The notes under the pieces were generated by a model, which was not told where the DNA came from, ran no database searches, and worked only from the letters and a program-made list of their open reading frames with translations. Both the position numbers and the translations under genes were made by a program. Below, one piece after another: positions 5,240 through 56,800 of a stretch of 64,000 nucleotides of DNA; position 1 is the first letter of the stretch; every line of letters begins with the position of its first letter. The stretch comes from Clavelina lepadiformis (taxonomy: Eukaryota > Chordata > Ascidiacea > Aplousobranchia > Clavelinidae): the NCBI RefSeq assembly GCF_947623445.1, contig NC_135245.1, positions 8,005,501-8,069,500 on the forward strand, given 5' to 3'.

Positions 5240-7200
5240 CTAGCCTACATAATACTGATGGCAGACCATATAAGTTTGTTAGAAATTCTCGGTAACCGGA
5301 ATTTAAAGAGTGTAGACATTTCACACCGGTCTCATCAAGAGAATCTCCCTTCCAAAGAACGACAGCAGCGAAATGTAACTAGTGGTGGTAAAGTTCTGTT
5401 GCAGCCTTATCTCGCGAGACTTAGTAGCCTACTGCAGTTTCGCAGGTCACAAACTATTGCTGACACTCGTCGGTCATCTATACCTCTGCATTTTATGTTA
5501 CTATTTCCACGAGAAACTGATGGCTGACATTTGGGCTTACATCAGGTGAACCCCTCATCAGGTCTAGAAACCTTCAAAAGAGTCGTTGCAAGGGAATTTT
5601 ATGTTTATCACCTGATCTTTGTCACCTTCACTTGCAATCCGAAATGAAATTCAGAATGCTCTTCTTTCAGGACAGGCAGCTGCTGATTGTCCCCACATTG
5701 TAGCTCATGTCTTCATCCAGAAACATAACGCCTTTATGGAGAAAATAAAAAAAATTGTGGTAAGGTTAAGACTTTTCTCTTATGTAATGTTATGTTGTTA
5801 AGTTTCAAAAAAGGGGACTGCCACACAGCCCTAATTTTCTCATACATGCTGACGATCATCGCCTTTGCATAGCTGACGACGTGGACAAGGTCGTATGTGT
5901 TGAACTTACTCCTGATCCGAATTCCTTGCCTGACGAATCCGAGAAAGATCAGGCAAAACGGTTGTATTGCAGAAGATGGTTCACGGGACTTGGGGACCAG
6001 AGCACACTTACGCACCTTGCATGGGTAATGGTACATGTGAGAAGGGCTATCCAAAGCCGTTCGCTGAGCGCACTGTTTGGGATCACAATAAATCCTACCT
6101 TACGTACAGGCGTCGTTCTCGAAAGCCCCACAGTTGCCAGATTCAGCACAATGGGCGCTCTGTTGGCAATAGCTAGTTTGTACCTTACACTCCATATACT
6201 ATGCGCTAAGATTTAGTTCTCATATCAACGTGGAGTCCTGTTGCTCCGCTTTGGCAGCCAATTACCTCTTTAAATATGTGCACAAAAGGTTTAAATGTGC
6301 CATGGTACGTGTTGAAAACGATCTCTTTCAAGCACGAAATGAAATTTACTTTTACCAAGAGATGAGCTCCATTGGTTTGAGTGAAATATGTTGGCGCCCT
6401 TTTTCGTTTGACATGAGCCAGCGTCAACCAGCTGTTTATGCACTCAGCATTCATCTTTTATACCAGCAAATGATATACTCGTACTTCGAGGAAGGTGACG
6501 AACGTGATGATGCTCAACAAAGGCCAAAAGTTACAGAGCTGGACGGGTTATTCGTGGATTCCAACAGAGATCATCCGGGCACAGAAGTCACATATTGCAA
6601 CTTTCCTGAGCGCTTTACCTGGAACAGCACAAGCAGAAAGTGGCCTCCCAGGAAAGCAGCTTATAATATTATCTGACACATTCTTATCGTGCATCTCTTT
6701 GCAGGAGACATTTTCTGCCTGCGCATTTTGTTAAAACATGATCACAGCAAAGGCGAATCATCCTTCGATTCCCTTCGACTGGTTAATGACCAACACTGCG
6801 AAACTTACCACGATGTCTGTCGGACACTTGGTCTTCTGCATCGCTCTTTGAGCAACATCACTGTCAATGGTAGGATGATTTTAAGAGGCAATGTGGTGTA
6901 CCTATTGATGAATGCACCCAGCGTGGAATGGTCCTATTATGTTTTGGAATCACGTTTGCAATGAAACGGAAAGGACCTGACGAGCTTTAAGCTTCCTTCC
7001 GCGGATGATCATATCAAAGTTGCGGTGTCTAAGTTACGTGGTCAATGGCAGCGTTCGCAGCTTCCGTCAATCATACAGGAAGCATTGCGTTATGACTGCT
7101 ATGCAAGACTTGGTTCGTGCAAGGCTTCATCTACCTTCTACACTGACGTCTTTACCATTCTTTACCATTTGATTTACCGATGTGTGCATGCGATGAATTA
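5240..7200 (+). mobile_element. Helitron remnant, Rep/helicase N-terminal part, decayed
   Basis: Short blocks in several forward frames match the Helitron replication protein. They include VTFTCNP near 5630, a block around 5660-5760 of the ALLPGQ...VARVF type, MVHGTWGPEHTYAPCM (5967 onward), NYLFKYVHKRF with SEICWRPFSFDM (6260-6420), and a late block around 6700-6960. The order and orientation match a single Helitron. The reading frame changes repeatedly and stops lie between the blocks, so it is dead. The 5'-to-3' DNA helicase half is not visible, nor is a 3' hairpin with a CTRR end, so both edges are approximate. It starts about 100 bases after the poly(A) signal of the threonine aldolase gene. 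Confidence 0.8.
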
Positions 7201-35825: not shown

Positions 35826-38800
35826 ATGACACTGGAAGCAATAAAGTATCGACGGGGTGAACTTGAAATTTTGAATCAGCTTCTTTTACCACACCACACT
35901 ATTTATGAAGAAATCATTACTGTCAAGGATGGCTGGGAGGCTATCAACCAAATGAAAGTAACTTTTAGTTTTAGAAATTTTCTTGTTTTGTCATGCGTTG
36001 TTTCTAGTTACGTGCTTTCAAAAAATTACTTGGGCATCACTTACTTTTCTACATGGACAGATGCATACATTGTGATGTGTTACAAACACTGAATTTTTTC
36101 TTGCTGAACAGCAAAGAATCCCACCTTTTCAAGGCGTTACAAGTTGTTTCACAGTAACTTACCTCTACTGGACGTTGCTATAATATTAGTATATTCCTTG
36201 TGTTGCGTAAATAAATGTTTTCCATAAGATCTTGTTAAAACAGCAAAGAAACGTTATAACCTTTTTTGAAGTCGCAAAAACTCTTGGTGGTTAACTTAAG
36301 TTTTAGATGTAATAATATCACATTTTTATTTTATTAAACAACTACTTATGCTGATGTGCTTTAGGTTAGAGGTGCCCCTGCAATAGCCATCGTTGGATGT
36401 TTGAGTCTAGCTGTTGAACTCCACAACAAAGATTTCAAACATGTATCAGAAATTGGTATATTTGTGCAAGATAAAGTTGCATATTTGGTAACAGCAAGGC
36501 CTACTGCAGTAAATTTGAGTAAAACTGGGGTTTCCATTTTCCAGTATTGTAAGGATCTCATAACAGCTGGTAACGAAAATATAGAAAGTTTAAAATCTCA
36601 GTAAGTACATTACAGTATATCCTGTATCAAGTATCTAGCATTCTAGCACATGGGTGTCCAAACTTTTGAGGCTCATGAACTACATTTATAATGGCCAGTT
36701 CAAAATGAGCTACTAATAAAGAAGTTCTTTTATCAATTGCTAAATTGTGACAACATATTGGGCACCCCTGATCTAGCATGAACGGCACTGTGCTAAAATG
36801 TGGTATATTTACTTATGTTAATATACATATTGAACATAATTTTGCCCAGTTGAATATTTGGAATTTAGTCCAAGCTGGAGTGGTAAATCAACAACAAATC
36901 AAAAATTTTCTTCTAGTAATTAAATTGTCCCATCACTGGTTGGTAATGAGAATGACAGTTCAAGTTGCTAGTTCATACCGCCTACCTGCAAAATAAGATC
37001 TCCGTGCTTGTCTGGACAATCTGGAAAATGTTAGTTTTTAAATAAATGCATTTATAAATAGGGTTTGCAGACCGAAATATTTGAAAAAGCGTTTTCAAAT
37101 ACAGTGACACCTTTATGATAGTAATGATCCTACCTAAACAATTTTTCTGATAAAATACTTTGTTGTATGTTACAATGAGGACATTTTTTTTGCATGTGCT
37201 ATAGTAAGTACTGCTTATATGCAGAAACCATATCGTGCTGTAACTTACGCATAGATCTACTTTCCGAAACTTCTATAACTGTTTCTTTTGCATGAATCAT
37301 TGGTAGTTGGGCTTGGCATAGCCAACTTAGCAATTTTCTGCAATTTTTAGTTATTACAAAACTTTAATTGTACGTACTTGCACATATCATTATGCTTTTT
37401 GGGTGAACTTCAACCCCATCGCTGTTTTTATTCATTTTTCTATCTTAGATTGCTGGATCGCATGGAAAAATTGTTACAAGATGATATCAATGATAATACT
37501 AGACTTGGTGAACATGGTGCTGAATGTATTCTGCAAGGTATGGCTGGCGAAAATAATGCCGGCTGCACCATCTTGACTCACTGTAACACTGGATCCCTTG
37601 CAACTGCTGGCTACGGAACAGCATTAGGTATTACGAGATTTGTTATCACTATTTTTGTTTGTACCTGGACCACAAGAAAAATAACGTTGATTGTTTTCAG
37701 GTGTTATTAGATCATTGAAAAAACGAAATCGTTTGGAACATGTTTATTGTACGGAAACCAGACCTTATAACCAAGGCGCTCGTTTGACTGCATATGAGCT
37801 TGTGCATGAAAAAATTCCTGCAACTTTAATTGCTGACAGCATGGTAGCATTGCTTATGAAAACGAAGAAGTTATCAGGTTTGTAGAACTTTCAGTGTTAA
37901 ATATTTGTATGTCAAACAAATATTTGACGTTTTATTGCTCATCACTATGTTATATGCCAATGTTGTGGTGTAAGTATGTCGAATTAGTGCCATTGTCATC
38001 TCACTTTACAGATACTTTCAAACTTGTCTATATACTCGAGAGGTTTCTGTTTTATTGTTTGCGTGTTCCCGCTTTGTGTATCCAGTGAAGTACACAGGAA
38101 TGTACTATTTGGCAATGAACAGTAGAACACTAACGATAGGAAACATGTTGTAGAATTTAATGTCGTTCCTATACCTTAAATATTGTTAATGTACTTAAGT
38201 TGTTGTAGCTAAACGCAGCTTCTGCAATTAAACGTAGTTTTACTTTAGTTTTACAGTTTATGACATCGATTTTGTTACAACTCATTGATTGGTAATAACT
38301 AGATTATTCCTGTCGCATTGCTCTTGCTTTGTTTTATATTTCCTGTGTACCTTACCGGGATTTCAATTTTTTTCATATGAGTGATTTAGCTTACGTTTGA
38401 AGAAACTAGTATTTAAAAATATTTACTACTTGTGCTACTACCAGTACTAGTTTTGCTAGTGTTTACTACTACTAATGAAGTTAGTACAGTACAACACCTT
38501 TGTTTTAGCTGTGGTAGTTGGTGCCGACAGAGTTGCGAAGAATGGTGATACCGCAAATAAAATCGGTACTTATCAACTTGCCCTACTAGCCAAACACCAC
38601 AACATACCTTTCTATGTCGCTGCACCAGTTACCTGTCATTGTGATGTCACATATCACGGTGACGATATTGTCATTGAAGAAAGACCTCCCCACGAACTAA
38701 AGCAAATTGCAGGGGTGAAAATTGCTCCAGACGGTAAGAAAGAAATATTGCGGAATATTCCACGAAATCATTGTAGACGTATCGCAATAGTCATGAATTA

Positions 38801-39145
38801 GAGTTACTATTAATCCACGACCACAATGATGTTTCGCCCCGTAAGTAATGATTTAGAGACCGCTTACCGGTGTTAGAAAGGGTTAAGTTTGTTTTTGTTG
38901 CAATTTTACCGTATAATTTATCGTATGGTAGTTTAAGACGCCTGGTAAAGTTGCATGTAACAGCAGCACTCCAACGTTTGATAAGTATCTAATTTTATTC
39001 TGAAATCAAAATGATTTTCTTTTCAGGAATTGATTGCTGGAATCCTTCGTTTGACGTCACTGAGCATAAACTAATAACTGGCATTATGACAGAAAATGGT
39101 GTGTTTACCCCAAAAGAATTTCAGGACCAAATTCATTTGCCATAG
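35826..39145 (+). CDS. MRI1: Methylthioribose-1-phosphate isomerase, six exons, complete
   Basis: Converts 5-methylthioribose-1-phosphate to methylthioribulose-1-phosphate in the methionine salvage pathway; cytosolic. Exons: 35,826-35,957, 36,365-36,600, 37,449-37,627, 37,701-37,877, 38,509-38,733 and 39,027-39,145. All phases agree and give 355 residues, close to the usual 350-370. Landmarks are the N-terminal [27 protein letters not shown] after the first intron, [18 protein letters not shown] with the active-site Cys168, [14 protein letters not shown], and [13 protein letters not shown] with the catalytic Asp248. The C-terminal [18 protein letters not shown] is typical. Every key residue I can check is present. 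A 122-base hAT miniature lies in intron 2, and a split pogo-type element begins 255 bases downstream of the stop. Confidence 0.97.
36649..36770. mobile_element. hAT-type miniature, 122 bp, in MRI1 intron 2
   Basis: Begins CATGGGTGTCCAAAC and ends GGGCACCCCTG. The flanks TTCTAGCA and ATCTAGCA match at 7 of 8 bases. One end has drifted from the CAGGGG consensus, so it is probably immobile. Confidence 0.75.
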
Positions 39146-40509: not shown

Positions 40510-41400
40510 CTTCTGAGATCAAAAACAAAAAGGAAAATCATCATTGTCCATAAATTCCACCTCTTCCGCAGCAACACGATCATCAGCACAATATTTATTC
40601 ATATATGATCGTCTAGCATTTGCATGCAGCCGAGCTAGTCTTGGTGTGACGTCAAAATTATCAGAAAATTTCTCACTCACTTTTATAATTCCCTCAAGAG
40701 TATTTACACCAAGATGGTTTCGCAGTTTGGTTTTGTTTAAGTTCGGCTTGGAGAATGTTCTTTCCACCACTGCAGTACTCTGTGGAAGAGCAGCTACCTG
40801 CAGCACAAATGTTGCCAGAGTTCTATAAGAATCAATTTTGCTCATAGCAAGCCAAAAATTTTCAAATAACTAGCCTTTCCATTGTCCAGAGATGATATTT
40901 TCATCTGCTAAAAGTGATCTCCATTGTCGCTTTGTCGGTCAATCTGCTGTGCATTAACGTTGAGCATGGTTGTAATGCAAGGAAGTCCACTAGCAATCGT
41001 GGCTGCAGCAGTGATTGAAGAAGTTTCGTTAACAATAGCAGATGGTTACAAATGCGAAAGAGATTGGAGTACAGGGTCATATAAATTGATTCTTTGATAT
41101 AATTGCTTCACTGCCTCCCTATACCATTCCCTACATCTTTCCAAGAAACTTTCTTTCTGATGAGATAGCAATTCTTTGATTGTGTCACTTGCCACCAAGC
41201 CTGGATAAACCTTTTGGATAGAAAGCCAGCGGGAGCTGTCGTCAACATTAAGATGGTGGATATGACTATCTTTGATATAAGATCGCTTCATAAAGTTCAA
41301 AGCAAACATTTTGATCACACGGACCACTTCGGACCACCGCGCGCAACACAAAGTCGTAAATCTACAAAACAAGATCACTTGATTCCTGTCTGTTCAATCT
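40510..41400 (-). pseudogene. hAT transposase remnant with C-terminal dimerisation domain
   Basis: The minus-strand frame 41,378-41,046 resembles the middle of a hAT transposase (DDSSRWLSIQKVYPG and following). The frame 40,845-40,519 is a hAT C-terminal dimerisation domain: LPQSTAVVERTFSKPNLNKT, then KLRNHLGVNTLEG. Between them the frame is broken, and the N-terminal BED finger and first catalytic residues were not found, so the enzyme is not functional. Confidence 0.8.
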
Positions 41401-45247: not shown

Positions 45248-47439
45248 ACTTAAGACTTGGACTTAACTTTATAAACGTTACTAATTCGAACGTTATTTCC
45301 GTTTATAATTCAGATAGCGTTGTACAGTTTTTCTTAGTGTGAAAAAAGATAAAGTTAGCGAGGAAGCCATTTATTTTTGACTTAACCTATATAGCAGCTA
45401 TAGGCCTAGAATTACCAAATTTTGTTTTGAGAATGACAGTAGAGCTGCAGATTTTTCTTTGAAACGTCATTAAATAACCGTCTTTGTTTTCTCATCGAAA
45501 CAAAACCTGCCAATTTCGTGAAAAATCAAATGTCTTTCCATCACTTCTGGTTATGTTTCCATTTCTTTTTCTAAAATAATGCCAAAAAGGAAATGTAAAT
45601 GCTAAAAATTAGTTTCTGCGGTTCTTTCGTGAAGAATTGTTTGAGTGTTTATGCAACTTGAAAAAGGAATCATAACCATCTTGGATAATAATTTGGGCTA
45701 TAGACATGTCGTCCACGTAGCGGTATGATATTCGTAAAAATTTTCATCAAATTTTACAAATGGTAGGCTAGGCTACCTTTGTAGGTCTGTTGTATAATTA
45801 ATCAGAAGCCCTGGAAGAGGCGCGCATTTGCCCGCTTGCCTTTATATTTTTTGCCACCACGAGAGCAAAGAGGAGTCTGTGTAGTTAATGACTCTAAAAC
45901 AAAACATTAAAATAGATTCTTGTTAAATATGCTGCTTACAGCGTCAGCATCAATGAGACGCAAATTTTTACATAACTCAGTCTTGATATACTGCATTTAA
46001 ACTCACGTACATGTGTTTCGTCTTTTTTGTGCTTCTGAAATTTACAATTTGCATAAAAAAGTAAAACACTGACAAAAGATCAAAAATACATTTTTATACC
46101 AGAACGCCAGGAATTCGAGACTGTGCGATTTTCTACTAAAGCAGCATTTGTAAAGAGCCGTTTTTTAAAATTTTGACCCACCTGAAAACAATTCCAGCAC
46201 CCTTCTTGTAATAAGGCTTATTGGCTTTTGGGCAGTATAGGCTACTTGAAATATCGCCAAATCGTCTGTATGAATTTGATAAACCGTTCGTCCTATATGG
46301 TAAAACATTAAAGTTAATCAGGACCTTAGTAAACAGACTGATAAGTGATAACGTCAAATGAAGTTAAAATATCATTGCAACTTTTGAATGTTTATCCTGT
46401 TAATCATATCAAACGGGTCCTTAACGTTGGTCTTGTGTTGGCGTAGTGGAGTAAGAAGCCTAAATAGTGTTAACTGGGTAAGTGTTAACTTAAAGCATGT
46501 CTTTACAAATGTAATTCAATCAGCATCCAACGTGAATAATTTTCCTTATTTTTCTGGGTGAGATAAAACAAAAAACAGATACTAGGTTGCATAATGTATT
46601 GTGTTTCCATAGTTTAGCAAAATTGCAAATCTTTTCTCGCTTTGAGCATTCGTTAAAGAAAACAAAGACTGGATTTTTGTATAGTAGTCGTATCAATGTA
46701 AGTGTAACTTAAACTATGTTTAAACGTTATTTCTACTCCAAACTTTACCTATTCGCACAGTAGGCCTATATATTGTGTTTTATGACACTGGAAATTGTTG
46801 GTTTCCGAACTTCAGTGGCCTAGTACATTGATTTTTTATTAAAACTTTTGTAGCCTATGAAACCTATGGCGATCGAAGGTTTGCAAGTAGCTTTTTAGTT
46901 TTATGCAAAATTACAGTAAGTTAATAGTTTTTACAGAATATTTTAATATATCAATCTATGTATATATGCTCACAATTAAAAATTCTATGTAAAACGCTAT
47001 ACTAAATAGTTCACTCAAATTGCCGAATTCGCCAATTGGCCAATTTTTTGGTGAATCACGTGTTGTGAATCACAGAATGAGTGTTTCTCTAGTAAATAAC
47101 CTTTGCCGCGTAATTGTTGTGGTTGCAAAGTCACCGATTTTGCTTTTCAGCTAAATAATAAGGCGTTGTTTAACACAGCTCATCTGAAAGATGTTTTACA
47201 ACTTTTCATGTGGTTTTTCTGGTGTAGGTTACAGCCATTACAGTAGTGTGACATATCATCTCGTCCTTTGACAATTAAGACGAAGCTAACAAGGCTTTTG
47301 TCTATTTGAAAACGGAAAGGTGATCCTACACACAGAAGCAAAAACCCTTTAAAGTAAACGCTTATCGCAGTGAGGCCGCAGCTTAACTAAAACTTTTTAA
47401 GGTTGCTGGCATTGTTTGCTTTTTTAAAGTTGCTGCAAA
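45248..47439. other. Intergenic, upstream of the tandem-Ubl gene
   Basis: About 2.2 kb in which I recognise no gene or element. The promoter of the gene beginning at 47,440 should be at its right end. Confidence 0.4.
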
Positions 47440-50400
47440 ATGCTGCTTTATACAGAAGGGAACCCAAATGGTGAAAAGTACAGGTACGTAAATGTGAGCG
47501 AGATATTTGATACTGGGCAAATAGAAGCTTTCAAGCTTTGTTAAATCAACTTTAGTTATTTTTGTAGGTGGGTGTTTACGGCTTTATTTACAAAACTTGT
47601 TGTAGAGAAAAAGTAGTAAACGTATAAAATATTTAATGAGACCAGTGTGTGCTGTCCTATAAGTTATATATTTGTTTTGGTCTACAATTTTACGATTCTT
47701 CATTACCTTATAGCGTATATATAATATGGTATAATCCAAATATTCAATAAAAGTATAAACTGTTTTGGGCCTTTGATTGTTGGGATTATTATCGGCGGCA
47801 AAAATAATCTGTTGGATTTTTCTCGTGCGTAAAAGACAAGTGTGCAGCTTCTGCTTGGCACAATTTATCTTTTTCAAATAAATATTAGTAGAATATTATT
47901 TTTCTGTTAACTGTGATCTCATAAATATTATCCAACAATATTCTTTGATGTTATATCAATTATTTATACGAAATTATTTATAGTTATGTTTTTGCGCAGA
48001 AATCTTCATCGTTCTGGGCTGATCATCCAAGTATGTCTCGGCGATACAAACGAAGACATTTGGTTGGAGGGCGTTCGTGTTTCTACTTTAATTTCTGAAT
48101 TGTACCAAATTATTTGGCAAAAAACTAGCATCCATCCTTCCTCCCAACGACTTTTTCTCGGTGGAGAAGAACTAAGATCAGATGCCAGCTTGCTTGATTA
48201 CTACTGCACTTCCTCGGAACAAGAAAAGAGCGATTGTGTGTTCCGTCTGCGTTCTTTCATTCCGCTCTTAATATCTACCCTCGATTGCCCAGGTCCTATG
48301 TTAAGTGAGGTCGAGGTTAGTCCTAAACATGACGAGCCAATTTACGACATAAAACGACGAATTCGTGATAAGTTTCGCATCGAAATTAATCGACAACGTC
48401 TTCACCTGCATCCATCGACAATGGTTTCTTTTGTTAGAAGACGACCTCTCGATGACATCAGATTACTTTCAACATATTTGCCATTTTCAGTGGAAAAGAA
48501 ATTTCTGGAAGTTATTGTACAAAAAAGTGACCCTGAAAATCTGAAATCGTTGAAAGAAATTTACATTCGACTACCAAGAAAAGTTACAAATACCCGCGCA
48601 ATTAATAATGAAGGTAAACTCAGTTTCAGTTGTACATTGCATTGCAACATGCCTCTTGATACTAAGCCTAGTAAAACATTTAATCAGAAAAAAGAAAACA
48701 CTCCAGCTCATCCGGACCAACTTCCTCCTCCACCTCCTCCTCAAACTCCAGAGAGTGACCTGGCAAGAGAAGAAACTCCAAATCAGCTTTCGCCTTCTGC
48801 TGCGATTGATACTTCAATTCTGTCCTCACATGTTGATGAAGTGTGGTGGCTGACAATAGCAGTTAGCATAGACCAAATAATAAGAAGGGATCCCACAATA
48901 AAGGATATCGAGAAGGTTCTAAACGAAGTTTTCAAATCAAACACAGCATTGGCAAATCAATTTACAGGCGAAGCCGCAAATAGAAAACCTGAGGAGTTGT
49001 TCGAAGCTAAAACGATTGGTTTTAAACTGTGTTCTACAAAACCTGTGACGGGCGATAAGCGGCTGGATCCAATCGATACCATTTACAGCAAACTGTTGAT
49101 GCGTCACGAAGAAATGCTCTTATGCTTGACGTATCGTAACATGGAAGATAGATTAGAGATTTTGCCAGCAATTGGTAATGCAGACGATGGTAACACTGTC
49201 ATCAATAGCGGAAAAAACATCACACCACTGATACCGCTACTGCCTTTGAAATCGTACACCGAAAAGAATGTTTGCTACACCGCACCCCCTGATCCTGTTT
49301 CTTTGAGATGGAGTGTAGATCCCACGCATGCAATAGATTGTGGAGCAAAGCCAGGAGCTACCTTTGAGCTTACCGGAGCATCATACTCTATGGCGTATGG
49401 GTCATGGGATATCCCGGAACATAGAAAGACATACGCAGAAATTAGTGTAGAAGGTTCACTTCATATCGGAGATCTAGGACTTTGTTCATTGATTCGATAT
49501 GATCCATGTAGCGGTGAAGGACGACCTGATTTTGATGCAGAGGTTCTGATTGGTCAAAGCAAAACAAAACAAGAGCACGCCAATTTCAAGCAAAGAAAGC
49601 AAATAGTTTTCTACGTACAAGATGCAGTTGAGGTTACATTGTTGGGACCGGTTAATTCTTTAACTGTTAGATCTAAAACTAACAAATTGTTTCCTCCCTT
49701 TTCTACGGAGTCTGCAAACAAATGGGCTAACCAAAGAAAGCAGCTCATCAGCAGCCAACAAGATCTAAGGAAAGGGTCGTTCAACCACCCTACTCTTCCA
49801 AAACCCGCTCCATTTCATTTGCGGGTGGATGAACGGTGTATCGACAAGTCACAGTTGCTTTCAGACATTCTGCCATCCTGGAAAGATAGACGACAAATCA
49901 ACGAAACAGAAATGGGTAAATGGTATCTTGGGAGGGAAAAGGTTACAGATATTGCTGTGAAACCCATTGCAGAAAACGGTGGAAAAATGATTGCTTTTGC
50001 AACACTTTGTGACAGAGGTGTTTCTACTGATGGTCGACCTTATCTTGCCGTCACCTACAAGCGTCTAATTCCAGTTTTTTCTGACGCCTCCATGATATAT
50101 CCACGAAATGCAGCTATTGATTCCTTGCGTAAAGATTTGGATTTCCGTATACAAGCTCAGTTTTACATTTGCAACCCAATAGATGAAGAGTTATGTACTG
50201 AAACAGCTAATTTCACAGTGCGCTTGCGACAGCGCATCATTCGAGTTCATCATGAAACGCATACACCAGATGAGGTAACCAACTTTGAAACACCACACGC
50301 AGGATTAGAAGCAGCATTTAATGTCAAATTGGCAACGCCAGAATGGCACCGTGGTATGGGATTTCAGCTTAGCCCAACAAAAGAATTACAATCACCTTAA
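47440..50400 (+). CDS. Tandem ubiquitin-like domain protein of unknown function
   Basis: A long open frame runs from about 47,986 to 50,400, almost all in one exon. Residue numbers count from ATG 47,986. Around 12-90 is a ubiquitin-like fold (SSQRLFLGGEELRSDASLLDY, like the QQRLIFAGKQLED region of ubiquitin). Around 105-180 is a second one (EPIYDIKRRIRDKF, then NRQRLHLHP). A linker with PPPPPP lies near 247-252. From about 283 to 804 is a large mixed region without recognised motif or membrane span. Neither Ubl ends in the GG needed for conjugation. The start is uncertain: ATG 47,986 lies in what may be an intron. A better model has exon 1 at 47,440-47,483 (MLLYTEGNPNGEKY), donor GTACGT, acceptor GCGCAG at 47,994-47,999 and exon 2 from 48,000, in phase, giving 814 residues. 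Converges on the small heat shock gene. Confidence 0.8.
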
Positions 50401-50485
50401 AGAAACTATAATAGCAATTACTGATTTAGAACACAAGGTGATGTCGTGTGGTGTCTTATATTTGTTCAATATATCTGTAACTGTT

Positions 50486-50491
50486 AATAAA
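50486..50491 (+). terminator. Poly(A) signal of the tandem-Ubl gene
   Basis: AATAAA 86 bases after the stop codon, a normal distance. Confidence 0.7.
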
Positions 50492-50619
50492 CCTTCACAG
50501 TCGGTGTAATGGTGATTGTACACTGTACATTATAGGTACACCAACCAAATCGGACAAAAACTGATATTTCAAACGTGATTTATAAGTAAGGAACAATCAA
50601 ATTGTTCTTCATAATGTTC

Positions 50620-50945
50620 CAGAGTTGTAAACAGGCCATACATCGTTAACCCGAACCGGACAATTTTATTTGAAGCACGTATATGGCTCGAAAGTTAAAT
50701 TTTCGAATGAATCAACGTCATCTTTTGATGCCATTTTTATACTGGCTGCCTTTTCTAAATTGCGCTTCGCTTTTTGAGAGAAATTTTTAGCACTCTGCGC
50801 GCACGCATATTCGTGTAAAGAAAGTGAAAGTGCGACGCAAATTTTTCAAAGCGTGAGTCGAGCCCGAATCTGGCCCGAACTTTTTTTCAAATTTTAGCCC
50901 GAACCCGAATACTACCCGAAAAGCCGGGCCCAATTTACAACTCTG
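50620..50945. mobile_element. hAT-type miniature between two convergent genes, 326 bp
   Basis: Starts CAGAGTTGTAAAC and ends TTTACAACTCTG, an inverted repeat. The flanks TAATGTTC and AAATGTTC match at 7 of 8 bases. The right part is rich in CCCGAA motifs. It ends 12 bases short of the right flank and 20 bases from the small heat shock gene stop, so it must lie in that gene's 3' UTR or just beyond it. Confidence 0.85.
50665..50670 (-). terminator. Candidate poly(A) signal of the small heat shock gene, inside a transposon
   Basis: TTTATT on the plus strand is AATAAA on the minus strand, 295 bases after the stop of the small heat shock gene and within the hAT miniature. I saw no canonical signal nearer to the stop. 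Confidence 0.45.
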
Positions 50946-50964
50946 AAATGTTCGTCAAGTCATT

Positions 50965-52433
50965 TCATGAAGTTTTGCTCGTCTCTTCATAGTAATTCGG
51001 CGGGCTGACTACTTTCTCAGGCGACATCGGTTCGTTGCTACTCCGTCGCGATATTGAAGCTGGATAAAATGTTTCCATGTTTCGCACAGGAGCCTCCACT
51101 CTGAGATATCCATCAGGCATTAGGAATGAAACTACGTCGTATGGGTTAATGTTGCAAGGAAGCTCAAATTCTCGTTTCAGTTCCCTAGACCAAAAAAAAA
51201 ATAAAATAAATTAAAGTATACGCTATGCTCTTGCAAGTACTGTGTTGTTTTTAGTACAAATAACATTAAGATTTTAGTTGTGTTGTTGCAGTTATGGAAC
51301 GGTTATAGACACTACACGAAAAAAGTGTTCGGATTTTGATCTTTAAAGTATAAGCTACGTAGAGTTGTATCATGTCGAGATAAACTAACTTAATCACTGA
51401 ATTCGGTCCTTTCTCATCGGTGTCCGTATTTGACTTGGCTCGAATAACAAGCCGCGTGCCTTCAGTTTTTACTATTAAGTCACTTGGCCTGATTGTAAAA
51501 ACATTATTTGTGAAAGAACAACTTGAAGAAGAAAATAACAATGATTTTATACACTAAGTTTAGACATAACATTGCGACATCAGTTTATCAATTTTATCGG
51601 CCATGTTTATAGTATACTCGCTGTAAGCCTACAAGTAGGAGTACAACTATAAACCATATATTAAAGACAATGTATTAAACGTTTACTTACTTAAATCCCT
51701 TTACATCTATGTCTACTTCAAATTTATCAGGATTATTTTGCCTTTGAGGACAAACATCTCTATCAATCTCAAACTCAGCGTCTTCTTTAAATTGGGCTGG
51801 AGCTTTCCTCAGAATTCTTCCTTCTGTATCCTGACTACTCAATGCTCTTCTTTTGTGAGTTGGCCAAATATCATCCAATTCTCTGTCAAAAAGCGATGGA
51901 AAATTGCTGTCCTGAAAAAAGCTGTCATCTAATGAACGGTTTCTGCAAAAAAAATCATCATTGCTCCCGTTTTTCCTAAAAAAATTCTTCTTATTCCACA
52001 TTGATCGTAAACAGCGATCATCAAAGTCTCCAATCATTTTGTGCATTCTTTCATCAAAATCATCTCTAAAAAAGTTAGCCGTGAGTCGAGTGCGCCTTCC
52101 GACACGATTTTTTCTCGGATAGATATCGTCTTCATCATCTAACCACTTATCGGAAAATACTGAGCACACGTTTTCGACTTCTGGTGTTATAGAACCACTT
52201 GATTTACGTGAAGACCTGGATGAACTGCTTTTTAGGTAATCTGTTTTTATAGAAGACTGTTCTTCATTCGGTGTCCTTCGCCCTGAGCTCCATTCGCTCC
52301 AGGGATCATTATCAAATAATCTGATTCTTGGTGATTCTCTTCTATGAGATAATCCTCCACACGTCTCAAACAATTCATCAGGTGTTTTTGATGAAACTGG
52401 TGCCGCTTCATAATCTTTATTCGTTCGCGACAT
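50965..52433 (-). CDS. Small heat shock protein (alpha-crystallin/HSP20 domain), three exons
   Basis: ATP-independent holdase chaperone family. Minus-strand exons 52,433-51,691, 51,488-51,390 and 51,184-50,965 join in phase to 353 residues, long for a family usually of 150-250. The first 235 residues are hydrophilic: a Ser-rich run (LKSSSSRSSRKSSGS), then an Asp/Phe/Arg-rich stretch (FFRDDFDERMHKM). The alpha-crystallin domain spans about 236-313 and is cut by both introns: DKFEVDIDVKGFK, then PSDLIVKTEGTRLVIRAK, then REFELPCNINPYDVVSFLMP with DGYLRVEAP. A C-terminal I-x-I motif is not evident; the tail is Ser/Pro-rich and ends TSKTS. No TATA box or heat shock element was identified. It converges on the tandem-Ubl gene. 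Confidence 0.9.
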
Positions 52434-53574
52434 TTTTCACTCACCCTGCGTGCAGTGTTTTCAATAATGATTAATTTTTAGGCAAACGTTTTCCAATTTC
52501 AAAGTTCTTAATTCAATTTCGTAGATCTTCACTGATGTGGCTGCTGACCCTATAATATAGTATGTTAACCTTTTTAAACTCAAACAAAATTGTTACATTT
52601 ATACGCATGTAACATACATGTAAACGCTCAAACCCATGAAACTCATGATATGTGTCGATGTGTGTTTAGTTCGTAGATTGACTTTATATCCCCTGTGGAA
52701 TAATGCATAGACTTCTGGCAAATTAGCGATTGTTTCATCAATGGAAAGGGACGACACACTGTGATGCAATCAGATCTATTTTCGTCCATGATGCGACCCT
52801 CACTTCAGTCAATCCGGAAAGCTTGCTATCCCTTGAGACGCTTGTGTTGATGCATCAGTTTCAATGCATTCAACATGTAATAATAGAAGCCTTGTAAATA
52901 TCGATTGAAACATGTACCGTATAGGCCTAACTCTTATTGGTCGTTTTTGAATTAATCACGTAAAATGTAACGCAATGTATCTAATAAACTTTGATTTGTC
53001 TGACAAAGTTAGATGTGGCTCGTCAGCAGAAAAAAAATTGCTGATATTTGTAAACCGGAAAATTTCTGTGATAAGAATGTGAATCATCCTATAAATACCA
53101 AGACATAACAGACTGGTTTTGTTGAATAATTATACTTTGTGGAGTAAGATCCAAGCTCATTTAAAGTGTCCTCTGTCAGCCTCCTTATAATCCTTTATTA
53201 ATGATATGTGAAGAACTAAAGTTACGATATGTCAACTACTTGATTCCCAAGTTAGTTTCTCTTCTTGGTTGGACTTTCGAGACTCCTTCGCTATTCTTTT
53301 AAAAACTTTCCACAGACAATCCATTTGGAATTGAAGCATAACATAATTAAGTTGGCAGTACGTTTTATTTGATCGACTACGCAAAAGAAGTTATCACACT
53401 CAAAAAACTGTATTCTTCCTTGGCACTTTGCCAAGCAAATAACAATGACGCAGTAAATGACACACACAGTGGAAATTATGAATGTGGAAAGTAAAAACTA
53501 TTGAAGTAGGCGCAGGTACGCGGACTCTTAAAAGAAGTACATTATCATCATTGCAGGTCGGGGCAATTTTTTTC
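52434..53574. other. Spacer between the small heat shock and DLK-like genes
   Basis: Both genes read leftward, so this holds the promoter of the first and the region beyond the 3' end of the second. Nothing else recognised. Confidence 0.45.
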
Positions 53575-53850: not shown

Positions 53851-56800
53851 TTAAAGAGGATGGGCGTGGTCCGATGAATGCGTTAATCTATTGATGTCTA
53901 GAAGCGAGTTAATCTCGTCTATTGTTGCGATTTCGCTATTACTTCCCTGAGGAAGCGCAACGTACAGACAATCGACTGGGTGTGGTTTTGTGCTTGCGTT
54001 TCTTGATCCACGCGGTGGCGTTACTGTGCGCACGACGAGTTCTGGTTTAGACCGGTATAACGGCGGGTTGCAAGCAATGTCGCGCTTCTCATTGGCCGCA
54101 TCACCGGTTTTCGGAGGAATGACAATGCTATTTCGGCTGGTTCTTTTGTTTTCAGCGTCATTGTCGTCGGCTGCTTGATGAGACCCACGATAGCAAAATG
54201 CGGCACCAACTCGTCCCCTTTTCCCGCAGTATATCCACATAAACGCGGCGATACCGATAAAGAGCGCAACCGCAACACCCAGAAATGCGAAAGTAACTGC
54301 TTGCACAACTGATACAGAAGCTTGATCTGAAGAACTGTTTAGAAGCGCAGAGCCATCTACGACATTTTCCACGTAGGATACATCGGAGTTGGAGGATTCA
54401 ACTTCAAGTTTGTGGACTATGCGAGTAACTTTGATGTTAGTAGATGCTGGATGACTTTTCTTTGGAGGAGATATTTCTTCGACAAGAGGTACTCTCTGGA
54501 TCTTAGGAAACTTTGCTCCGCCAGTTCCAGAAAAAAGGGTTTGCAACGAGGACTTCTTAGATTTAACCGCATTTCCTAGTTGGACTGGAGCTACGGATAA
54601 GGTCGTGGTGGTTGTTGTTGATACCGTGGGAACAGGCAAGCGTTTTACTGCCTTTTCACAGCGTGCACCCTGGTAACCTTCAACACAAACACATCTGTAT
54701 GAACCTTTCCTGTTGATGCACCGTCCGCCATTTGCGCAGGCGTTTTCTTCCATGATGGCGCACTCGTTCACGTCCTGATTGCAATATCTGCCAACGTATC
54801 CACGAGCGCATTCACAACTGAAGTCACCGATCAAGTCGTGACAACGGCCACCGTTAGCACAAGGCCTGGTCAAGCACATCTTGATACGGGTCTCACACCT
54901 GTCGCCAGCGTATCCACTCGGACATGAACATCTAAGAAATAACAAAAACGTTATAGAAAAACGGAAACAACAACCGAATTGGCGTTACGGCAGATGATAC
55001 TATAAGATATATGTAGTAATTAACTAATTATATATATGCTTTATACTATACAGACAAATTCCCTTACTTTCCGCATCCAGCAATGCCGTTGCCAATTGAA
55101 CACGTTCCTCCGTTTAGACATTGAAGAGCAACATTGGGTTGGGTAGAGTGCGCAACGGTGGGCGGCACAATAACAACAGGCTTTCGTTTTTCATTGCAGT
55201 TTCTACCTGTGTATCCTTCCGGACAAACACAAACATAGGAACCTTGTTTGTTGATACATGTCGCTCCGTTATAGCAAGGGTTGTGTCGTTCACAGAACTG
55301 CATATCTGTACAAGAAAAAAACAACTTTAGCTATTAGAAATCAATTTTAACCTTACTTGTAGATATATTATTGAGGTTAAAGCAAAAGGCGCAACTCACC
55401 AAGGTGACAGTGTCTTCCGCCGTAACCCGCCTTGCAGTTGCATTGCCAGGGCTGATCACATGTGCCATGAATGCAACCTGGTGCTAACGTGCATTGTTCG
55501 CAATTGTCACCTTCCCAGCCTGGATAGCAACTGCAGGTCCCATCAGGTTGGCAATAACCTTTTCCCAAGTTGCATCTCAATGCACAATCTCCTTCTGTGA
55601 CAAAAAAAATAAATTTTATTGTTTCTGAAATTAAAAAGCATAAGATTTGTAAACTTACAATTCGAAATATAGTGAATGTCATTGTATTGTCTCAGTTTTT
55701 ATCGATTTAATTCAACGCAAACAAGTCCTTAATGTTATCCAGAAAATTGGTACTACATTACGCCCCGGGGAAATAAGATGCGGCCGCAACAACATATCCT
55801 TTGAATAGAAATTCTTGATACGACAATAAAATATTTCATTACAAGCAGGCTTGTGATGAAAGAACAGAAAGTTTCATTCAAACCTAGTTTAATTACATGG
55901 CGTATGGCGCAAAATTCCCGAAGGAGTATTATCGCCTCAAAATGTGAATCCATGACGTAGGCTACACTCGATCAGGAGACAATCTCGAGATAATTTGCCA
56001 TCTTCTATCCAAGATAAGCGACAGACGCTCACTGTAAATACTCAACAAATCGATTTCGAGGAGATTATGCGATTGTACGATCTGCTTCCTGTAAGCGCGT
56101 GCCTTTTTTTGTTCAGGCAGACTGCAAGGCGTAAGTTGACGGTATCTGGTATGCGTGCGCCATCGCAGAGTTCGTAACACCGGCTGTCGCAGGGTACGAA
56201 ACGTTATTCCCTCGCGAGCAACTCTGTCAACTTTCTTATGGGCGATTATATATATTGACACCTGTTAGACTAAGCACGCGAGTAAACCAACCGTGACCCG
56301 TTAAGCCGAAAGGCGAACTCCTTTTACCACAGCTACCGCATTGTTTACTTTTTAAAATTCCTGATAATGGGGTTTAAGTGGCTACAATTTAAATGCACTA
56401 ACACGAAGGGCTTTACGGACTATTGACAAAATGTAGCTCGGGTCACCTGGCAACAACGCCACTTGCATGTTCCCAGGCATATTAGTAGTTCATCCGTCTC
56501 TACCAACCCTGCCAGAGTCGCGTCGATATTTTATCCCAGAACACAATACCTTGCGCCTATATTACATCTTGTCGGCGCCTGGCTAAATAATTCGAGATTA
56601 CAGGTTTATAACAAGTGCTTGACTGCCCCAACTATAGAGATAACGATATAGTAAGGATTGTTTTTTTCCGTGGGAATAAAGCCACCAGCGCATAGCCCTA
56701 ATGGCGACTTTTGATAACGGAGTCGTTTCAAGTGGGTTACATCTGTCTCATCCAAACCCACTTCACATTAATAAAGCGTTTAAACAATGTTGACTGAAAA

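What the first reader, a model, noticed from the sequence alone, without database searches (positions are those of the whole stretch)
47440..50400. A large tandem-Ubl protein with an unassignable 500-residue C-terminal region
Two successive ubiquitin-like folds open a protein of about 810 residues whose remainder matches nothing I know. Unlike every other host gene here, nearly all coding sequence is in one 2.4-kb exon, which suggests a retrocopy, an acquired gene or a fast-evolving lineage gene. Neither Ubl carries a terminal GG, so a scaffold or proteasome/ligase adaptor role is more likely than conjugation. The Ubl calls come from sequence pattern and the rest is inference.
Basis: partly seen in the sequence, partly recalled or inferred. 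Interest (0 to 1): 0.7.

Follow-up and report, generated by a model that had tools for sequence, protein, structure and literature searches.

The report
Tandem ubiquitin-like protein, unknown tail
This animal gene looks real and encodes about 810 amino acids that begin with two ubiquitin-like units joined head to tail, followed by a long part that matches nothing we could search, so it is probably a non-conjugating adaptor whose job remains to be tested.

Summary
It starts with one secure ubiquitin-like (Ubl) unit (Pfam ubiquitin, E=2.2e-7). A second, degenerate one follows in the register of linear di-ubiquitin, the first ending RLR-SF where ubiquitin has RLR-GG. Alone, the second is below Pfam's cut-off (E=0.03 over 24,736 models). 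The C-terminal 526 residues match nothing beyond chance in Pfam, PHROGs, PDB sequences, phages, viral contigs or prokaryote genomes. Codon use lies within the range of five neighbouring pieces; poly-A and target-site-duplication marks of a retrocopy were not found. Best reading: a host gene for a non-conjugatable Ubl adaptor. The structure model was uninformative (mean pLDDT 31). The own-genome search did not complete and no animal sequence collection was available, so paralogues, orthologues and 'lineage-specific' are untested. A possible third Ubl-like unit (about 48835-49143) rests on weak evidence. Interest is modest.

The parts
47440..47483 (+). putative coding exon 1 (14 codons and 2 bases), donor GTACGT; uncertain
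   Evidence: splice model gives one open frame of 814 aa; no transcript evidence
47484..47999 (+). putative intron, 516 nt, GT-AG, weak polypyrimidine tract
   Evidence: alternative intronless start ATG at 47986
48000..50400 (+). main coding exon, stop TAA 50398-50400
   Evidence: ORF of 827 codons stop to stop, far beyond the simulated maximum of 218
48013..48258 (+). Ubl 1, ends RLR-SF in place of RLR-GG
   Evidence: Pfam PF00240 E=2.2e-7 on the exon-2 product; PDB matches to ubiquitin and to the Np95-like Ubl 1wy8
48259..48531 (+). Ubl 2, degenerate, joined directly to Ubl 1
   Evidence: PF00240 E=0.03 alone; co-aligned with linear di-ubiquitin up to residue 136 of the exon-2 product; end set by eye
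48532..48834 (+). linker, proline-rich (PPPPPP), probably disordered
   Evidence: read from the sequence; no family match above cut-off
48835..49143 (+). possible third, very divergent Ubl-like unit
   Evidence: strand-helix-strand-helix-strand order in a low-confidence model (blocks of pLDDT 36-49) and hydrophobic pattern by eye; no Pfam, PDB or hhalign support
49240..50397 (+). C-terminal region of 386 aa without any match beyond chance
   Evidence: Pfam, PDB, PHROGs, phages, viral contigs, prokaryote genomes
50486..50491 (+). polyadenylation signal AATAAA

Best explanation
A host protein-coding gene for a cytosolic or nuclear adaptor. Its N-terminus is a fixed, uncleavable linear di-ubiquitin-like module, which docks on ubiquitin-binding partners (proteasome, ligases, deubiquitinases or UBA/UIM proteins). 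The proline-rich linker spaces it from a C-terminal part that selects the client. Shown: the coding frame, Ubl 1, and the lack of GG at the junction and after the second unit. Likely: Ubl 2 and the head-to-tail register. Inferred: partner binding, the adaptor role, the location and client binding by the C-terminal part.
For: ORF size against simulation. PF00240 for Ubl 1. Di-ubiquitin alignment across the junction, with VFRLRSF over VLRLRGG. In that alignment, read by eye, ubiquitin's Ile44 is Phe and Val70 is Val in Ubl 1, so part of the usual binding patch (patch recalled) is kept. GG is absent, so a C-terminal glycine for E1 activation or for cleavage at the junction is missing (established knowledge). 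Codon use within the neighbours' range.
Against: Ubl 2 is weak alone, single-sequence hhalign does not align it to Ubl 1, and its Ile44 position reads as His. No interaction, expression or structure evidence; the only model is uninformative and shows no clear beta-grasp for either Ubl (mean pLDDT 31.2). The C-terminal part could hold an unrecognised enzyme fold.
Confidence: 0.5

Rival explanations
1. The C-terminal part is a fast-evolved version of a known catalytic or binding fold (for instance a ligase or peptidase domain), so the protein is a divergent member of a known Ubl-plus-enzyme family.
For: Ubl domains often precede enzymes (established knowledge); the low-confidence model puts five adjacent strands in 652-744 of the exon-2 product.
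Against: No Pfam or PDB sequence match at E up to 10 other than hits I judge chance.
Confidence: 0.25
2. Retrocopy of a multi-exon parent gene.
For: 2.4-kb uninterrupted coding exon.
Against: No A-run of 7 or more in the 600 bases after the stop and no exact direct repeat over 10 nt between the flanks compared. In 46500-51500 only one 16-nt direct family and two imperfect inverted pairs were found, which I judge chance. A likely but unproven 5' intron. An old retrocopy could have lost its marks.
Confidence: 0.08
3. Gene acquired from a virus, bacterium or other organism.
For: No known relative of the C-terminal part.
Against: No relative in phages by tblastn, in viral contigs (no pattern match) or in prokaryote genomes (7 pattern matches, none confirmed); the two pattern scans reach close relatives only. 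GC3 and codon use resemble the neighbours.
Confidence: 0.05
4. Conserved but unannotated animal gene: orthologues exist in many invertebrates and it only looks orphan because no animal collection is held here. This is about origin and does not exclude the adaptor reading.
For: No animal sequence collection could be searched here; long intact frame with native-like codon use.
Against: Pfam, which covers all of life, has no model that matches the C-terminal part.
Confidence: 0.45

Closest known systems
Linear di-ubiquitin / polyubiquitin (PDB 2w9n, 8q7r and others)
   Same: Head-to-tail ubiquitin folds in the same register with no linker
   Different: GG at the junction replaced by SF; low similarity; large unrelated C-terminal extension
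ISG15 and FAT10 (tandem-Ubl modifiers; features recalled)
   Same: Two Ubls in tandem; ISG15 appears among weak matches of Ubl 2 (E 1.1-1.8)
   Different: These end in GG and are conjugated; here no GG and about 620 further residues
OASL (tandem Ubl fused to another domain; features recalled)
   Same: Non-conjugated tandem Ubl fused to a larger protein
   Different: In OASL the Ubls are C-terminal and the partner is an oligoadenylate-synthetase fold; here they are N-terminal and Pfam matched no such domain
Np95-like (UHRF2, name recalled) Ubl, PDB 1wy8
   Same: Highest-ranked single-domain chain for Ubl 1 in the PDB table (E=2.5e-5)
   Different: No tandem Tudor, PHD, SRA or RING match in this protein (domain make-up of UHRF recalled)

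Membership tests
Ubiquitin-like domain proteins (PF00240) | Ubl domain above the curated score | tested here: met
   31 bits against 25.4 for the exon-2 product; 24.3 for the Ubl 1 piece alone
Ubiquitin-like domain proteins (PF00240) | beta-grasp fold | tested here: inconclusive
   single-sequence model, mean pLDDT 31.2
Tandem-Ubl proteins (ISG15, FAT10, OASL kind) | second Ubl adjacent to the first | tested here: inconclusive
   E=0.03, 14.5 bits, below the cut-off of 25.4 alone; co-aligned with di-ubiquitin; not aligned to Ubl 1 by single-sequence hhalign
Conjugating ubiquitin-like modifiers | C-terminal or processable GG | tested here: not met
   junction reads RLRSF, Ubl 2 ends without GG and the protein ends in ELQSP
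UHRF family | PHD, SRA and RING domains after the Ubl (recalled) | tested here: not met
   Pfam finds none of them at E up to 1
Proteasome shuttle factors (RAD23/ubiquilin kind) | UBA domain in addition to the Ubl (recalled) | tested here: not met
   no UBA match in Pfam at E up to 1 for the whole exon-2 product or up to 10 for seven pieces; HMMER's filters may drop weak ones
Retrocopies | poly-A tract and target-site duplication | tested here: not met
   an old copy could have lost them
Retrocopies | multi-exon parent gene in the genome | not testable with these tools
   own-genome search unanswered in 10 of 10 attempts

The most novel reading that the evidence does not exclude
The protein carries a run of three degenerate ubiquitin folds that mimics an uncleavable linear ubiquitin chain, fused to a C-terminal fold without precedent: a built-in chain mimic that tethers clients to ubiquitin receptors.
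Probability: 0.12. Interest if true: 0.6.

Novelty: new variant of a known kind. Interest (0 to 1): 0.3.

Why it matters
If the C-terminal part is a new fold and the N-terminus works as a fixed linear-ubiquitin mimic, the protein would be a natural, non-hydrolysable bait for linear-ubiquitin receptors in an animal. On present evidence it is a well-supported gene with an orphan region, which is common in animal genomes (general knowledge).

Tried and rejected
Structure: one AlphaFold2 job on the exon-2 product without an alignment gave mean pLDDT 31.2 and pTM 0.24. I draw nothing firm from it.

Internal duplication: hhalign of six single-sequence pieces against each other, 15 pairs, gave probabilities over 80 for three pairs only, all neighbours, where the 10-11 aligned residues are the overlap I had cut into them. 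No internal repeat was found. The same call gives no support for Ubl 1 aligning with Ubl 2 (probability 5.5, six overlap residues) or for the third unit aligning with either (0.1 each); single-sequence comparisons are weak tests.

Third Ubl: a three-way alignment was loose (14% identity to Ubl 1, against 30% for Ubl 2), Pfam gave no family and PDB no hit. Kept only as a possibility.

Hits dismissed as chance: phage baseplate protein gp17 (E=0.21; 0.33), a Piwi-domain protein and ribosomal L31 (E 0.91 and 0.98), plant cysteine-rich domain over the proline run (E=0.24; 3.9), COX4_pro_2 (E=0.33).

Papers: four searches held 1, 72, 36 and 39 papers, of which 1, 10, 10 and 8 were listed; none of the listed titles or abstract starts describes this gene. 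Of PMC13225635 I saw nine passages; they do not concern it. The unlisted papers were not seen.

Other searches that led nowhere: Rfam found 0 matches and ARAGORN 0 tRNAs in the window; NCBIfam and PADLOC 0 families for the exon-2 product.

Full report
The reading frame is real. A stop-to-stop frame of 827 codons spans 47917-50400, the longest of the 18 frames of at least 110 codons listed in the window; the next is 377 codons. In 60 simulated 64-kb sequences (order-1 Markov) trained on the frame itself the longest frame was 218 codons, and in 60 trained on the window 179. Mean log relative synonymous codon use is 0.062. The null (500 draws with background composition) has mean 0.029 and sd 0.014, with a maximum of 0.0755, so some null draws can reach it and the signal is modest. 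Five neighbouring coding pieces, which also trained the table (893 codons), give 0.00 to 0.156. GC3 is 0.34, inside their range of 0.29-0.43.

Gene model. The donor is good and the acceptor mediocre next to three others placed by eye. An in-frame ATG at 47986 would make the gene intronless. Only transcripts can decide. AATAAA starts at 50486.

N-terminus. Residue numbers are those of the exon-2 product (800 aa, from 47998). Pfam's ubiquitin model scores 31 bits on it. The piece with Ubl 1 alone scores 24.3 bits (E=2.7e-5) and the piece with Ubl 2 alone 14.5 bits (E=0.03), both under the curated 25.4. The E-value of 0.03 is for 24,736 models. For the one model expected next to a Ubl the chance is of the order of 1e-6 (my arithmetic), so I accept Ubl 2 as likely. 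Against ubiquitin chains one continuous alignment covers residues 19-136, crossing the junction as VFRLRSF over VLRLRGG. The very low E-values of the long chains reflect many repeats each scoring about 14-20 bits; against single di-ubiquitins E is about 1e-5 to 2e-4. Within that alignment, read by eye, Ubl 1 keeps hydrophobic residues at ubiquitin positions 44 (Phe) and 70 (Val), while Ubl 2 has His at position 44. Against this, hhalign of the single sequences did not align Ubl 1 with Ubl 2.

C-terminus. The stretch from 48820 on (526 aa) finds no PHROG or phage match, no viral-contig match and no confirmed prokaryote-genome relative, and one PDB match that I judge chance (E=0.21). Its pieces find no Pfam family except COX4_pro_2 at E=0.33, far below its cut-off. 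The whole exon-2 product finds nothing in NCBIfam or PADLOC. Of these libraries only Pfam and the PDB cover animals, so 'matches nothing' means no described family, not no orthologue.

Structure. Without an alignment AlphaFold2 failed (mean pLDDT 31.2; 793 of 800 residues below 50), for the two Ubls as well. The best-scoring stretch, residues 284-379 (blocks of 36-49), shows strand, helix, strand, helix, strand. With the hydrophobic pattern this suggests a third Ubl, but no sequence comparison supports it.

Origin. There is no A-run of 7 or more in 50401-51000, and no exact direct repeat over 10 nt between 47300-48000 and 50400-50950. Nothing found points to a retrocopy or to foreign origin. 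The neighbours look like ordinary animal genes: an Hsp20-type gene, just under the curated cut-off (20.5 against 20.8 bits); an EGF-repeat protein, whose Delta/Jagged-type EGF matches are below their cut-offs; an IF-2B family enzyme (MRI1-like by eye); and a HAD-type hydrolase (finer names recalled). In that of 10 pieces found no family.

Conclusion. A real host gene with a probably non-conjugatable di-Ubl N-terminus and an orphan C-terminal part, most likely an adaptor. Modest interest until orthologues and a good model are in hand.

Noticed in passing
window 50965-52436, - strand: Small heat-shock protein (Hsp20/alpha-crystallin) gene: PF00011 at 20.5 bits against a cut-off of 20.8 on one piece, with a 249-codon acidic, serine-rich open stretch upstream that has no Pfam match.
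   Followed up: partly
window 53851-54984, - strand: EGF-repeat protein (PF00008 E=2.3e-16) with Delta/Jagged-type EGF matches below their cut-offs and, by eye, a transmembrane segment; perhaps a Notch ligand.
   Followed up: partly
window 40519-40869, - strand: Looks like a hAT transposase fragment; the dimerisation domain scores 19 bits, below the cut-off of 21.4. The nearby frame 41046-41393 has no match.
   Followed up: partly
window 37351-39145, + strand: IF-2B family enzyme (PF01008, E=1.4e-26 on the piece 38460-38801), by eye methylthioribose-1-phosphate isomerase, split by introns.
   Followed up: partly
window 5788-6676, + strand: Two overlapping frames (142 and 167 codons) resembling mobile-element code by eye; no Pfam match.
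   Followed up: partly
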